Assembly: GCF_003610695.1 (NCBI RefSeq)
Contig: NZ_RAQH01000003.1
Span: 248,001 to 312,000 of the forward strand
Length of the DNA stretch: 64,000 nucleotides
Direction of reading: 5' to 3'
Origin: Epilithonimonas arachidiradicis
Lineage (GTDB): Bacteria > Bacteroidota > Bacteroidia > Flavobacteriales > Weeksellaceae
Part shown: positions 48,194-51,969 of the stretch, in pieces
Layout of the letters: each line of letters begins with the position of its first letter
How positions within the stretch are numbered: position 1 is the first letter of the stretch
Translations under genes and position numbers: made by a program
Notes under the pieces: generated by a model
Databases searched by the model: none
Seen by the model: the letters and a program-made list of their open reading frames with translations, nothing else
Told to the model about the DNA's origin: nothing

Positions 48194-49255
48194 TTACTTT
48201 TGATATAATTCTTCCCTGATCTCAATTAATATTTTTTCAGCTTTTTCTTTATCTGGTAAATCTGGTAAAGAAGATCTATCAGCTAACAAATTCAATTCTT
48301 CTATTAATTGGTCAGCCAACAAAAGCAAATCATCATAATCCCAATTTCCTGCTTTGATATCCAAAAGCTCATCACGGTTTTTAACACGGATTTCAATCTT
48401 ATTATTTTTGAAAATATTGACAGCCGATTGCAAAAGACGAATAGTATGCATCATATTTTTACTGTCATAATTCTTGCCGTGTTTTTGATTGGTATTGTAT
48501 CGGTCATCATTTCTTTTCTCGACCCAATCCCAATATTCTTTATAGTTTTTGCAATAAATAGAGTAGGCATCCTGATTGAAAAACAAATAAGCTTCTTGCT
48601 TTTCTTCTTTTGGGACAGATGATAAACTGACTTCATTAGAATCTTCATTTTTGTAGATTCCACTGTAATTCTTATCTCCCAAGTCATCATAAAACAAAGC
48701 GAAAACACCTTTTGAATTGGGCATCTTTACCAAACCGCAATTTTCTTGTAAAGAGTTTTTTCCCTTCAACCAATCTTTTGCAGGAATTGAATTTGAATCT
48801 TCCAAAATTACACAAAAATCCAGAATTCCTTTTCGTTCTTTTTCAACAGGATTCACAATCTTTTTATTAAGTCCTCTTGCTTTCTGAATCTGAGTTGACG
48901 CATATCCACCAAAAGTATCTTTACAAAGTTTTGATAGAAAATCTTCCTGACGAAATTGATCCATTATCGGATTTTTGTAAAGAATACAATCTTCCGGCGT
49001 TGTTAATATTTCCAGAATATTTGGATTATTCTTTAATAAAAGTTCAGTGAATCTTCCAATCTCGTAATAGACAATATCATTAGTTGCATTTGAAACTTGT
49101 GGAATATATTCTAAACCAAAGAACAAATCTTTCGGTAAATAGAAAACACCTTTTATATCTGTGTCAGAATTTTCCGTCGCCAATCCGAAAGACTTGCTTC
49201 CGGAAATGGCCTCGAAAAGGATAAGGTTATTTTGTTTTAAAAAATCTATGGTCAT
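48194..49255 (-). CDS. COG3541-type (YcgL-like) nucleotidyltransferase, larger copy
   Basis: This 353-residue protein begins with a DNA-polymerase-beta-type nucleotidyltransferase core: SGSKSFGLATENSDTDIKGV (about 18-36) contains the GS motif and the paired acids. The C-terminal half is helical and lysine-rich. It resembles predicted nucleotidyltransferases of the COG3541 group, whose substrate is unknown. It is the last gene of an operon running rtcB, tRNA-like sequence, nucleotidyltransferase, unknown, nucleotidyltransferase. The context suggests action on RNA ends, possibly nucleotide addition or capping, but that is inference. A single base separates it from the preceding gene's stop. Confidence 0.8.
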   Translation of the reverse strand: MTIDFLKQNNLILFEAISGSKSFGLATENSDTDIKGVFYLPKDLFFGLEYIPQVSNATNDIVYYEIGRFTELLLKNNPNILEILTTPEDCILYKNPIMDQFRQEDFLSKLCKDTFGGYASTQIQKARGLNKKIVNPVEKERKGILDFCVILEDSNSIPAKDWLKGKNSLQENCGLVKMPNSKGVFALFYDDLGDKNYSGIYKNEDSNEVSLSSVPKEEKQEAYLFFNQDAYSIYCKNYKEYWDWVEKRNDDRYNTNQKHGKNYDSKNMMHTIRLLQSAVNIFKNNKIEIRVKNRDELLDIKAGNWDYDDLLLLADQLIEELNLLADRSSLPDLPDKEKAEKILIEIREELYQK

Positions 49256-49256
49256 T

Positions 49257-49736
49257 TTAGTTTTCGGGTATTAATTCTTTGCGTTTTTGTTTGGCAAAAT
49301 CTAACAAAAATCTTTGCAGTTCTGAAAATTTAATTTTCCATTCTGTTTCAACTTCAAAATTAACATTTTCAACTCCTTCAATAAAAAAGTAATATAATCT
49401 CTCATTCCAATTGATGAAAATTTGTTGAGAACCAATATCAGATAAATATAGTCCATAATGAAAACTATAATAATCCTCAGGTAAAGGATTTAAATCTAAA
49501 TACTTCAAAAACTCCCAAATTGTTTCAGGGATATTTTCTAAAATTTCATATTTACTCCCTAACTGAAAGCCAGAATAATATAAATATGCTTTTCCTGAAT
49601 TCTCAATTAATAAATCGCAATTAAAAAGATACTTTGTAAATCCATCACCAAAAGAATAAGCAAAAATATAATCTTGCTTCATTCTCAATTGGTTATTCAC
49701 ATTGGTTCTGTATTGTGGGGTTGAATTAGTATCCAT
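49257..49736 (-). CDS. Unknown 159-residue protein between two nucleotidyltransferases
   Basis: I do not recognise this family. The protein has 159 residues, is acidic and aromatic-rich, with no signal peptide or membrane segment. Visible words include YSFGDGFTKYLFNCDLL, YLYYSGFQLGSKYEIL and LYYFFIEGVENVNFEVE. The pattern of alternating beta strands is reminiscent of small immunity or SMI1/KNR4-like folds, but I cannot support that. It lies 14 bp after the first nucleotidyltransferase and 1 bp before the second, so it is almost certainly made with them. An upstream start at the codon for M19 (MKQDYIF) is an alternative. Confidence 0.65.
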   Translation of the reverse strand: MDTNSTPQYRTNVNNQLRMKQDYIFAYSFGDGFTKYLFNCDLLIENSGKAYLYYSGFQLGSKYEILENIPETIWEFLKYLDLNPLPEDYYSFHYGLYLSDIGSQQIFINWNERLYYFFIEGVENVNFEVETEWKIKFSELQRFLLDFAKQKRKELIPEN

Positions 49737-49750
49737 TTTTAATACAAATT

Positions 49751-50500
49751 TTATTTTTCTAATAATTCTACAAATATTCTTTCAGCTTCTGATTTATCAA
49801 GATTTCCTGCGCTCAAAGTTTTCGCTTTTTCTGAAAGTTTTTCTATTTCTGATTTAAGATATTTGAAAAGTTCCCAATCTTGAGCGTGGAAATACTTTTC
49901 TCCGTTTCCAGATTTTATATTCAGTAAAAATTGAACTTTATCGAATATATTTTCTGGTAACAAATCTAACATTTCGTGAAATATTACCGGCGGAAAAGTT
50001 CCTTTCTCAACAACCCATTTTGAGGCTAAAGTTGTCCTTAGACAATAGAAATAATCTTTAAGCTTCACTTTATCTTTATTACACGATTCCAAATATTTTT
50101 TACTTATTGATAAATAATGGAAAACTACTGAAACAGGAGAAAAAGCTTCTTTTGCTAAAGGTATCATCTTTTCCAGGAATGTATCATTTTTTATATAAAA
50201 TATGTGTGAAAACAGATGCTCCAAAAGCGGAACGTTCGATTTGTTCAATAAATGAAAAGTCTTCTTCAAGTCCCAGCCAGAACCATCCAAATCCTCTTCG
50301 GTCATAAATTCTATTGTATCGCGCTTTTCCCAAGGCGAAAGATACCAATCTATAGGATGTTTGTATATGAAACGTATATCGTAATCGCTATCGGGAGAGG
50401 CAAATCCCCAAGAACGACTTCCTGATTCTATCGCAAAAAGTATCTCTATATTTTTCTCTTTTTCAAGAGTTTTTAATTTATCTATTATTTTTGTTTTCAT
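49751..50500 (-). CDS. COG3541-type (YcgL-like) nucleotidyltransferase, smaller copy
   Basis: This 249-residue predicted nucleotidyltransferase has the core motif ESGSRSWGFASPDSDYDIRF (about 25-44): GS signature plus DxD acids. WYLSPWEKRDTIEF and GSGWDLKKTFHLLNKSN, which I associate with the COG3541 group, follow. It starts 18 bp downstream of the tRNA-like sequence and 77 bp after rtcB. The two nucleotidyltransferases of this operon are clearly different in length and sequence, so they probably have distinct partners or steps. Confidence 0.82.
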   Translation of the reverse strand: MKTKIIDKLKTLEKEKNIEILFAIESGSRSWGFASPDSDYDIRFIYKHPIDWYLSPWEKRDTIEFMTEEDLDGSGWDLKKTFHLLNKSNVPLLEHLFSHIFYIKNDTFLEKMIPLAKEAFSPVSVVFHYLSISKKYLESCNKDKVKLKDYFYCLRTTLASKWVVEKGTFPPVIFHEMLDLLPENIFDKVQFLLNIKSGNGEKYFHAQDWELFKYLKSEIEKLSEKAKTLSAGNLDKSEAERIFVELLEK

Positions 50501-50518
50501 TGTTTTTAAATTTCTAAG

Positions 50519-50571
50519 TGAGCGTGAAAGGACTCGAACCTATGACCGTCTGCTTAGAAGGCAGATGCTCA
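50519..50571 (-). ncRNA. D-arm-less tRNA-Arg(UCU)-like sequence between rtcB and a nucleotidyltransferase
   Basis: On the minus strand, 7 bp after the rtcB stop, lies a 53-nt sequence with a complete anticodon arm: stem TCTGC/GCAGA, loop CTTCTAA, anticodon UCU. A variable loop and a T arm with the canonical GGTTCGAGTCC core follow (one U-U mismatch in the stem). The 3' acceptor strand CACGCTC and discriminator A are present. The normal 5' acceptor strand and D arm are absent. The 5' end TGAGC, which would be the D-stem remnant, can pair with the 3' GCTCA to give a 5-bp closing stem. The result would be a compact tRNA-like fold without a D arm. No CCA is encoded. It may be a functional tRNA mimic or the scar of a deletion or integration. 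Confidence 0.72.
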
Positions 50572-50577
50572 TAAGGT

Positions 50578-51969
50578 TTATCTTTTCACAAAATACTTCT
50601 TCTTCTTCTTCTTCCAAGGTGCATTTTTCCCAACATCGCCAGCCATAATACAACCGTAAGGCATCACTTCATCTAGAACTTCGCAAAGTCCATATTCTTC
50701 GATTTGGGCTCTTACGTTTTTGGCACTTTTGTAGGCGCTAGGTAATTCGGAAATATCAATTTCGTTGGTGAAAAAGCGGATGTCCAGACCTTGGGTTTCC
50801 TCAGCAAAAACTTCCTCAATAGTTTTGTGCGCCAGAGATTTTTTATGAAAACTTCTGCTGAAGTTTCTCCCTGCACCGTGAGGAGCAAAACCTAAATTTC
50901 TGTCGTTCGTTGTCCCTTGGACAATCAATACAGGTTCCGCCATATTCAGAGGAATTAGTCTTGGACCTGTAATATCCGGCAAAAATTTGTCGTCCAGCGG
51001 TGTTGCTCCTTTTGCGTGGTAGAATAAATCTCCATCTCTGAATACAAAATTATGTTCGTTCCAATATCTGTTTAATTTTTCGATATTTAATTTGTCTAAA
51101 GTCGCATTATGAATGGATTCGTGGTTTTCTTTAGTCCATTTTCTGATTAATTGCAAAGCTTCCCAATATTGCTGTCCTTCCTCAGTTTCAAACGGAATCC
51201 AGGCGTTTTCCTTCAATGTTTCCGGCGAAAGTTCCATTCGGAAGCGGTTGGCGACTTTCATTCCTTTGTCGTATAACTTTGCACCAGGCGCTCTGGAACC
51301 GTGATGGGTCACTAGCATTGTGTTTCCCGTGTTTTTAGAAATTCCGACAAACAAAAAATGGTTTCCATCACCCTGAGTTCCCATATGCGAACGTGCGATG
51401 CTGATGAGGTTTTCGTCATTCAGGAAAAGATTTTCTCTGAAAGCATCCATCAATTCCTGAGACATTGGCATTTGCTCACCTCTTGGCCTTCCACCATAAC
51501 CAAAATACGTGATAGAATGTGCTGCATCCAAAACATCTTTCGGATTCACTTTTCCAAAATCTGTCAACATCACAGAACAGCAAATATCTGCACTATGAAA
51601 TCCGGGATGAATCGCATTTTTCGCCACCACAACACCGCCAACAGGAATATGTCCTTCAGGTCCAGTTGGACAAGCATCCGGCATAATAGCACCACCAATT
51701 AAAGTAGGTGTTTTCATCAAGACATTCATTGTGTTGATGACTTTTTCTACGTTGTCATTTTCGCTTTCATCTTCAGCTCTGATGTTGATGATGAATTCTG
51801 CAGGATTTTCTAATAAGGAAATCGGTTCTGGAGATTTAAATTGTTCCAGATATTCCTTCATTTGATTTTCGTCCAATTGATTTTTGTTAATATATTCCAA
51901 AGCTTCGGCAAACCATTTTTTCGGCGCGTATCCTAAAGCGATTAAATCATTTCCTGTAATTGTTTTCAT
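50578..51969 (-). CDS. rtcB: RtcB-family RNA ligase
   Basis: This 463-residue protein of the RtcB family joins RNA 2',3'-cyclic phosphate or 3'-phosphate ends to 5'-OH ends using GTP and manganese. Visible are the metal-site motifs HSADICCSV (a variant of the usual DIGCG), GDGNHF and THHGSRAPG, and HGAGRNFSR (H364 onwards), the motif holding the guanylated histidine. It ends in a lysine-rich tail. ATG 51969 ([13 protein letters not shown]) is preferred over 52005. It is the first gene of the minus-strand operon containing a tRNA-like element and two nucleotidyltransferases, suggesting RNA repair rather than housekeeping splicing. Confidence 0.9.

What the first reader, a model, noticed from the sequence alone, without database searches (positions are those of the whole stretch)
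48194..51969. Compact operon: RtcB ligase, D-arm-less tRNA-Arg mimic, two nucleotidyltransferases and an unknown protein
On the minus strand rtcB, a tRNA-like sequence, a COG3541-type nucleotidyltransferase, an unknown 159-residue protein and a second such nucleotidyltransferase follow each other with gaps of 6, 18, 14 and 1 bp. RNA ligase and nucleotidyltransferases together with an embedded tRNA-shaped RNA suggest a system that senses or repairs cleaved tRNA, for example after anticodon nuclease attack; the arginine UCU anticodon arm would be the model substrate. RtcB operons with structured tRNA-like RNAs are known (the Y RNAs beside rsr-rtcBA in Salmonella). A D-arm-less tRNA combined with paired COG3541 enzymes is not something I recognise.
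Basis: partly seen in the sequence, partly recalled or inferred. Interest (0 to 1): 0.8.

Follow-up and report, generated by a model that had tools for sequence, protein, structure and literature searches.

The report
RNA-repair operon with broken tRNA copy
This is a bacterial operon that very probably mends broken RNA; the tRNA-shaped piece inside it looks like a broken copy of an ordinary arginine tRNA gene, but it sits in the slot where many relatives carry a dedicated tRNA-mimic gene, and a shared predicted DNA switch ties the operon to other RNA-quality genes.

Summary
The operon is real: rtcB, RlaP1, an unknown 159-aa protein and RlaP2 (Pfam names both COG3541-type genes RlaP, an RNA-repair nucleotidyltransferase). 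The "D-arm-less tRNA" is the 3' 56 nt of a tRNA-Arg(UCU) gene, flank included, 53/56 identical to the genome's own tRNA-Arg. One genome of the window's genus has it at this locus. A 39-bp operator precedes rtcB; its 22 sites in 23 genomes of the genus precede rtcB, Ro60, Band-7 or mimic-RNA genes, and it co-occurs with the neighbouring WYL regulator (13/13 genomes with it, 1/10 without). So: a known RtcB/RlaP repair system, probably WYL-controlled, that lost its mimic-RNA module; a truncated tRNA-Arg gene, probably functionless, now sits in that slot. A decoy role is not excluded.

The parts
51983..52023 (-). Predicted promoter-operator of the operon: inverted repeat CGCAA-N5-TTGCG overlapping a Bacteroidetes-type promoter (TTACTTTG)
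   Evidence: 1 match, 0 expected in shuffles; same element in front of rtcB in many relatives; 22 sites in 23 genomes of the genus, all before RNA-repair genes among the genes I tested for. The promoter type is recalled, not tested.
50578..51969 (-). rtcB, RNA 3'-phosphate/5'-hydroxyl ligase (463 aa)
   Evidence: PF01139 1.6e-33; solved RtcB chains at E 4e-12, with the HGAGR guanylylation-His motif aligned and, in a weak first segment (3.4 bits), the metal-binding Cys (the roles of these residues are recalled)
50515..50570 (-). 3' part of a tRNA-Arg(UCU) gene (from the 3' strand of the D stem to 4 nt past the discriminator base); truncated copy
   Evidence: 53/56 identical to the own tRNA-Arg; RF00005 24 bits, under cut-off; absent in 7 of 7 same-genus relatives with RlaP1
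49751..50500 (-). RlaP1, RNA-ligase-associated Pol-beta nucleotidyltransferase (249 aa)
   Evidence: PF10127 8.9e-67 over the full length; in 181 of 320 family genomes at E 1e-20
49257..49736 (-). 159-aa protein of unknown function; optional operon member; weak fold resemblance to Mago nashi
48194..49255 (-). RlaP2, second RlaP-type nucleotidyltransferase (353 aa)
   Evidence: PF10127 3.1e-20; follows RlaP1 in 7 of 7 same-genus loci, at about 1-24 nt in 6 and about 2.4 kb in one
52637..53644 (+). WYL/WCX transcription factor, candidate regulator of the operon
   Evidence: PF13280 and PF25583; ortholog (85% identity or more) in 13 of 23 genomes, all 13 with the operator, 1 of the other 10 with it
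52216..52551 (+). HopJ-family gene, divergent neighbour of rtcB; role unknown
   Evidence: PF08888 4.6e-50; found by rtcB in 7 of 7 same-genus loci, 4-5 kb off in two of them

Best explanation
It is an RNA-repair operon of the known RtcB/RlaP kind. Likely working: RNA ends left by ribotoxins (for example broken anticodon loops) are first filled in by the RlaP nucleotidyltransferases where a nucleotide has been lost and then joined by RtcB; a WYL regulator acting on the CGCAA-N5-TTGCG operator controls this operon together with the unlinked rsr (Ro60) locus. Shown: gene content, conservation of the operon, the shared operator and its co-occurrence with the WYL gene. Inferred: substrates, order of steps, regulator binding. 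The tRNA piece is a truncated copy of a tRNA-Arg(UCU) gene that entered the rtcB-RlaP1 gap in this lineage, where relatives carry a tRNA-mimic-RNA module that this lineage lacks; it most likely has no function of its own and would be transcribed only as part of the operon mRNA.
For: Families. rtcB, RlaP1 and RlaP2 together in 7 of 7 same-genus loci with RlaP1 and in many stretches of the family. tRNA piece: 53/56 identical to the own tRNA-Arg including 3' genomic flank, which points to a DNA-level copy; not a complete tRNA gene; missing in 7 of 7 relatives; exact 5' junction in no other species of the collection; not the family mimic (13.6 bits, against 65.6-129 for intact copies; truncated copies gave 55 in L189, and 48 in L240). 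Mimic-RNA module at the same locus in another genome of the genus (L231). Operator: 22 of 22 sites before rtcB, rsr, Band_7 or the mimic RNA; 2 sites in the own genome, rtcB and rsr. WYL co-occurrence 13/13 against 1/10.
Against: The own genome has only one clear stray tRNA piece (45 hits over cut-off, this piece at 24 bits, one 15-bit hit), and it lies in the slot where relatives keep a tRNA mimic; the 77-nt gap is 2e-5 of the genome. One relative (G017) has a 21-nt tRNA-Arg anticodon-arm match, a hairpin, about 18 nt after RlaP2. The predicted extended hairpin of the piece is somewhat better than chance (159 of 5000 and 26 of 2000 controls do as well). No functional data exist for any step.
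Confidence: 0.62

Rival explanations
1. Functional decoy or sensor: the tRNA-Arg(UCU) anticodon arm in the rtcB-RlaP1 mRNA, extended to a long hairpin by the upstream bases, is bait for an anticodon nuclease; cutting it titrates the nuclease or changes expression of the RlaP genes, and RtcB can reseal it. It would have replaced the missing mimic RNA.
For: Same slot as the family mimic RNA; only clear stray tRNA piece of the genome; extended hairpin, z -2.95; second tRNA-Arg anticodon-loop hairpin in the same operon of G017, E 6.5e-4 over 427 kb for that tRNA; PMC7790460 (passages) floats YrlA's tRNA-like domain as a competitive inhibitor of the nuclease and cites tRNA-Arg cleavage by colicin D as an inducer of the E. 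coli operon.
Against: Not conserved; the operator occurs once in the window, before rtcB, so no promoter of this kind of its own; hairpin little beyond chance; T stem broken and acceptor 5' strand missing; in PMC7790460 (passages) YrlA was not cut by the nuclease; the G017 hairpin is borderline once all 41 tRNAs are counted (3 shuffles gave best E 0.002, 0.035 and 0.035).
Confidence: 0.17
2. Integration scar: a mobile element that uses tRNA-Arg(UCU) as attachment site left the 3' end of the tRNA gene behind.
For: In G002 and G019 of the same genus, 3' pieces of tRNA-Arg lie about 56 and 36 kb from the intact gene, like the ends of islands (the islands themselves were not examined for integrases). 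The window piece is likewise a 3' part with its genomic flank.
Against: Those pieces begin at the anticodon stem (TGCC), the window piece 7 nt earlier; the intact gene is on another contig; none of 10 flanking proteins scanned is an integrase; three relatives run from rtcB straight into RlaP1.
Confidence: 0.13
3. Recombination product: an ancestral mimic-RNA gene in this slot recombined with tRNA-Arg through their shared D- and T-arm sequences, and the 5' half was then lost.
For: The mimic RNA sits at this locus in another genome of the genus; D and T arms of the mimics share 20-22 nt almost exactly with real tRNAs; L189 shows a truncated mimic where no ~584-aa gene is found.
Against: No remnant of mimic leader, hairpins or D arm is seen in the window; one T-loop base (GAG against GAA) is the only mimic-like difference.
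Confidence: 0.15

Closest known systems
RtcB/RlaP RNA-repair systems (Burroughs and Aravind 2016, recalled; not held). RlaP is described in PMC7824862 and PMC6514570 (passages)
   Same: RtcB ligase next to RlaP-type Pol-beta nucleotidyltransferases; the abstract, as I recall it, also names TROVE and Band-7 cofactors with Y RNAs and a novel tRNA-like molecule
   Different: Two RlaP paralogues in tandem; the window copy has a truncated tRNA gene in the slot of a cofactor RNA; a shared WYL-linked operator did not appear in the listings of my searches, none of which asked for it by name
rsr-yrlBA-rtcBA operon of Salmonella (PMC7790460, passages)
   Same: RtcB with Ro60 and a tRNA-like Y RNA; here rsr is unlinked but shares the operator
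   Different: No rtcA or RtcR among the operon and neighbour proteins scanned; a WYL protein next to the operon; the family mimic RNA is not called YrlA
YrlA bacterial Y RNA (RF02553)
   Same: tRNA mimic linked to RNA repair
   Different: In one search the short family mimics (4 loci) match tRNA at 48-54 bits and not YrlA, and the long ones (L186, L187) match nothing; in the own genome a weak YrlA-like hit (39.7 bits, cut-off 69) lies 0.8 kb beyond rsr

Membership tests
RtcB RNA ligase | RtcB domain with guanylylated His and metal-binding residues | tested here: met
   PF01139 117 bits, cut-off 27; HGAGR aligned to solved RtcB, Cys stretch aligned weakly
RlaP nucleotidyltransferase | PF10127 match and Pol-beta motif GSxxxG...DxD | tested here: met
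   Both proteins over cut-off; GSRSWG..SDYD and GSKSFG..SDTD read
RtcB/RlaP RNA-repair system | ligase and nucleotidyltransferase in one conserved operon | tested here: met
   7 of 7 same-genus loci with RlaP1 also have rtcB upstream and RlaP2 downstream; in one RlaP1 is truncated
RtcB/RlaP RNA-repair system | repairs cleaved RNA in the cell | not testable with these tools
   needs bench work
Functional tRNA gene | complete cloverleaf recognised by tRNA finders | tested here: not met
   ARAGORN none; RF00005 24 bits, cut-off 29, model positions 9-63 of 71
Family tRNA-mimic RNA (model R1) | acceptor, D and T arms with replaced anticodon arm | tested here: not met
   13.6 bits, E 1.9; no match in G000 at E 1e-10
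YrlA Y RNA | RF02553 match at the locus | tested here: not met
   no Rfam family at gathering in the window; own genome's weak YrlA-like hit is at the rsr locus
Attachment-site remnant of a mobile element | integrase or element nearby | tested here: inconclusive
   10 flanking proteins of 39.4-59.7 kb, none an integrase; the rest of the window was not scanned, and a scar need not keep an integrase
Mago nashi fold (159-aa protein) | shared fold well above background | tested here: inconclusive
   [not shown]

The most novel reading that the evidence does not exclude
The gap between rtcB and RlaP1 is a standing slot for a tRNA-mimic RNA. Many Chryseobacterium fill it with an anticodon-less mimic plus a dedicated undescribed protein; in this species, which lacks that module, a tRNA-Arg(UCU) anticodon arm was taken over as bait or sensor for anticodon nucleases, and G017 did the like after RlaP2. 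A WYL factor controls the whole set, Ro60 and Band-7 loci included.
Probability: 0.14. Interest if true: 0.82.

Novelty: new variant of a known kind. Interest (0 to 1): 0.5.

Why it matters
The window piece alone would be a curiosity. Following it suggests that RNA repair in this bacterial family is built from exchangeable modules: ligase, two RlaP enzymes, Ro60, Band-7, an undescribed ~584-aa protein, and tRNA mimics without a normal anticodon arm. One sequence element links their loci, so the set can be read as a regulon with a candidate regulator. That makes open questions testable: what damage switches such systems on, and what the tRNA mimics do.

Tried and rejected
Rejected: 'D-arm-less tRNA' as a conserved RNA. 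Not followed: the 26 nt before the piece as DNA copied from another gene; a 92% match over 26 nt in G016 (E 4.9e-4) lies in a gene conserved in several genomes of the genus and may well be chance. Rejected: phage source; the one IMG/VR contig sharing a 31-mer carries a whole tRNA-Arg with another acceptor stem. Not shown: the ~584-aa protein as a Ro60 relative (profile comparison probability 0.8%); its model was too poor to search (pLDDT 56). The pattern was mis-spaced by me and its zero is meaningless; one search replaces it. One search opened a wrong paper from a guessed DOI and was not used. PADLOC gave only a Csm2 hit at E 0.024 for RtcB and WYL/Cas-associated models for the WYL protein. 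No convincing solved structure for RlaP1 (best E 0.16). Against a simple picture of the mimic: L233 and L239 have a mimic beside rtcB without a match to the ~584-aa or the Ro60 protein; 5 of 94 hits are not within 12 kb of RlaP1; L188 has the ~584-aa gene and hairpins but no mimic.

Rows dropped: 22 of 116 mimic-RNA hits lie in genomes whose RlaP1 was not among the 143 positions I copied from the printed, cut list (its rows for the window's genus were left out, that genus having one mimic hit, G006, without RlaP1); 89 of the other 94 lie within 12 kb of RlaP1. One search saw the 30 best-scoring of the 116 hits. In one search the script counted 24 because G010's two sites appear in two loci; distinct sites are 22 (rtcB 13, rsr 4, Band_7 4, mimic RNA with ~584-aa gene 1). 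'Next gene' there means next among 14 query proteins; ORFs not among them could lie between, above all before Band_7 (768-1046 nt) and for G010's outer site (708 nt before rtcB). Operon stretches: 48, 427,040 bases, chosen by me from earlier calls, not at random.
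Full report
What is there. The ligase matches PF01139 and both nucleotidyltransferases match PF10127, 'RlaP, RNA repair pathway DNA polymerase beta family'. A WYL/WCX regulator and a HopJ-family gene lie divergently upstream. The flanks are sugar metabolism on one side (GH43, GH67, transaldolase, transketolase, galactokinase, galT) and rhodanese, QueG, DUF2459 and alanyl-tRNA synthetase genes on the other. 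Record titles of near relatives (Epilithonimonas caeni, xixisoli, hispanica; two other members of the genus are titled Chryseobacterium) place the window in the genus Epilithonimonas; this is by nearest relatives, the own genome being unnamed.

The tRNA-like segment. It is the 3' part of a tRNA-Arg(UCU) gene, 50515-50570, from the 3' strand of the D stem to four bases beyond the discriminator base; 53 of 56 bases equal the genome's own tRNA-Arg on contig C10. The shared flank CTTA instead of CCA speaks for a copy of DNA, not of a mature tRNA. In one search the own genome has 45 tRNA hits over cut-off, this piece at 24 bits and one further hit at 15 bits.

Conservation. Of 23 genomes of the genus 8 have RlaP1, the own one included. 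In the other 7 the segment is missing: three run from rtcB straight into RlaP1 (4 nt between them in G022 and G004; in G020 the rtcB frame reads into RlaP1), two have an insert with GTCATTCC repeats (G017, G010), two a longer spacer that seems to hold a small ORF, read by eye (G021, G002). The 159-aa ORF is missing in all 7 too. An exact 28-mer over the segment's 5' junction has no match in the collection of 84,980 species, the own one and near kin possibly left out by the tool. In 395 genomes of the order the only other match to a 42-nt pattern of the segment at up to 2 mismatches is a real tRNA-Arg.

What the relatives have instead. I compared 41 distinct own tRNA sequences with 48 operon stretches. 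Besides the window piece and one hairpin in G017 (below), tRNA mimics appeared beside rtcB or RlaP in 8 stretches. For the four that one search lists, Rfam scores them 48-54 bits as tRNA; acceptor, D and T arms are complete and the anticodon arm carries an insert of about 40 nt; the two long ones searched there (L186, L187) gave no match. A covariance model of the 8 RNAs gives them 89 bits or more and the own tRNAs searched with it 49 or less; a truncated copy in L189 scores 55 and the window piece 13.6. In the family 110 of 320 genomes have it at E 1e-10 (116 hits). Of 94 hits in genomes with a RlaP1 position at hand, 89 lie within 12 kb of it. In the 30 best-scoring loci, 30 of 30, the order is rtcB, mimic RNA, ~584-aa protein. 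On 39 distinct sequences 99.6% of pair cells are standard, 6 of 7 acceptor pairs have compensatory changes, and no shuffle of 500 reaches the observed values (the alignment was fitted to the model, which favours the structure, and the D arm never varies). Downstream lie about three hairpins repeating one motif that also occurs in the mimic's insert. The ~584-aa protein has no Pfam or NCBIfam match; 1592 homologues were found and 120 listed, those named being Chryseobacterium save one labelled a Chlorobi MAG. That the large genus g6 is Chryseobacterium rests on these names and on equal contig lengths (for example G067). A longer form of the mimic (about 130 nt) goes with a Ro60-type protein in L186, L187, L234, L237, L238 and L240 (TROVE was tested by Pfam for L186 only). 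L233 and L239 have a mimic but neither protein. One genome of the window's genus, G006, has the short mimic and the ~584-aa gene between the same neighbours as the window operon, without rtcB and RlaP there. I infer that the slot was once occupied by the mimic in this genus and that the window lineage has lost it.

A shared switch. Before rtcB lies CGCAAAAACATTGCGCACTTGCATAATTACTTTGCATCATC, 51983-52023. The same element precedes rtcB in many relatives, RlaP1 in several stretches where it stands apart, and the long mimic RNAs. In 23 genomes of the genus it has 22 sites in 14 genomes and none with the reversed control. The next gene, among the 14 proteins I tested for, is rtcB for 13, rsr/Ro60 for 4, a Band_7 gene after a leader of about 0.8-1 kb for 4, and mimic RNA plus ~584-aa gene for 1. 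In the own genome the two sites serve rtcB and an unlinked rsr gene. The WYL ortholog (85% identity or more) is in 13 genomes, all with the element; of the 10 others only G012, a genome 73% complete, has it (Fisher 1.2e-5, not corrected for common descent). I infer that the WYL protein binds it. Recalled, not held: Burroughs and Aravind (2016) already linked RtcB, RlaP, TROVE with Y RNAs and Band-7 with a tRNA-like RNA; the operator would be the regulatory link between them.

Is the window piece more than debris? For: its place in the mimic's slot; its being the only clear stray tRNA piece in the genome; a predicted long hairpin on the anticodon arm (z -2.95), though 159 of 5000 random window 12-mers and 26 of 2000 shuffles do as well and the 58-nt piece without the upstream bases has z -1.16; and in G017 a 21-nt tRNA-Arg anticodon-arm match with the exact loop CTTCTAA about 18 nt after RlaP2 (z -3.60). 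Against: no conservation, no operator of its own, broken T stem, no acceptor 5' strand, and the borderline chance of the G017 hairpin. I hold it for a truncated tRNA gene copy without function (about 6 in 10), with a decoy or sensor role at about 1 in 6.

Novelty. The operon itself is a member of a known kind. The tandem RlaP pair, the ~584-aa protein with its mimic RNA and hairpin array, and the WYL-linked operator joining four kinds of RNA-repair loci did not appear in what I saw of the held library (search listings; passages of three papers). None of these searches named the operator or the ~584-aa protein, and the one key paper is not held, so this is no proof of novelty.

Noticed in passing
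L264 (own genome C5:92000-97700): Next to the own rsr gene lies an array of five extra tRNA genes (Leu, Cys, Glu, Pro, His) that duplicate isoacceptors found elsewhere in the genome, an RNase H-like gene (PF04308) and a weak YrlA-like RNA. tRNA genes also lie upstream of the operator in L243 (2), L262 (6) and L260 (7, one of them tRNA-Arg(UCU)), but not in L249, L258, L261 and L263.
   Followed up: partly
[not shown]
   Followed up: partly
L163, L172, L173, L175, L180, L182, L188, between rtcB and the ~584-aa gene: Two to three tandem hairpins (AAGGCAAAGnnAGTTCCTAT...ACTnnCCGCCTT, U-rich ends) repeat a motif also found permuted in the mimic RNA's insert; L188 has the hairpins but no mimic.
   Followed up: partly
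L258, L260 (G007, G020): A Band_7 gene with the same operator has a leader of about 0.8 kb holding weak tRNA-like and YrlA-like matches.
   Followed up: no
L049:10062-10082 (G017): Hairpin with a tRNA-Arg(UCU) anticodon loop about 18 nt after the RlaP2 stop codon.
   Followed up: partly
L051 (G004, Epilithonimonas hispanica): The RlaP1 match ends at residue 116 and abuts a RlaP2 match from residue 37, apparently by a deletion.
   Followed up: no
G002:C5 60903 and G019:C1 2458639: 3' pieces of tRNA-Arg(UCU) about 56 and 36 kb from the intact gene suggest genomic islands using this tRNA as attachment site.
   Followed up: partly
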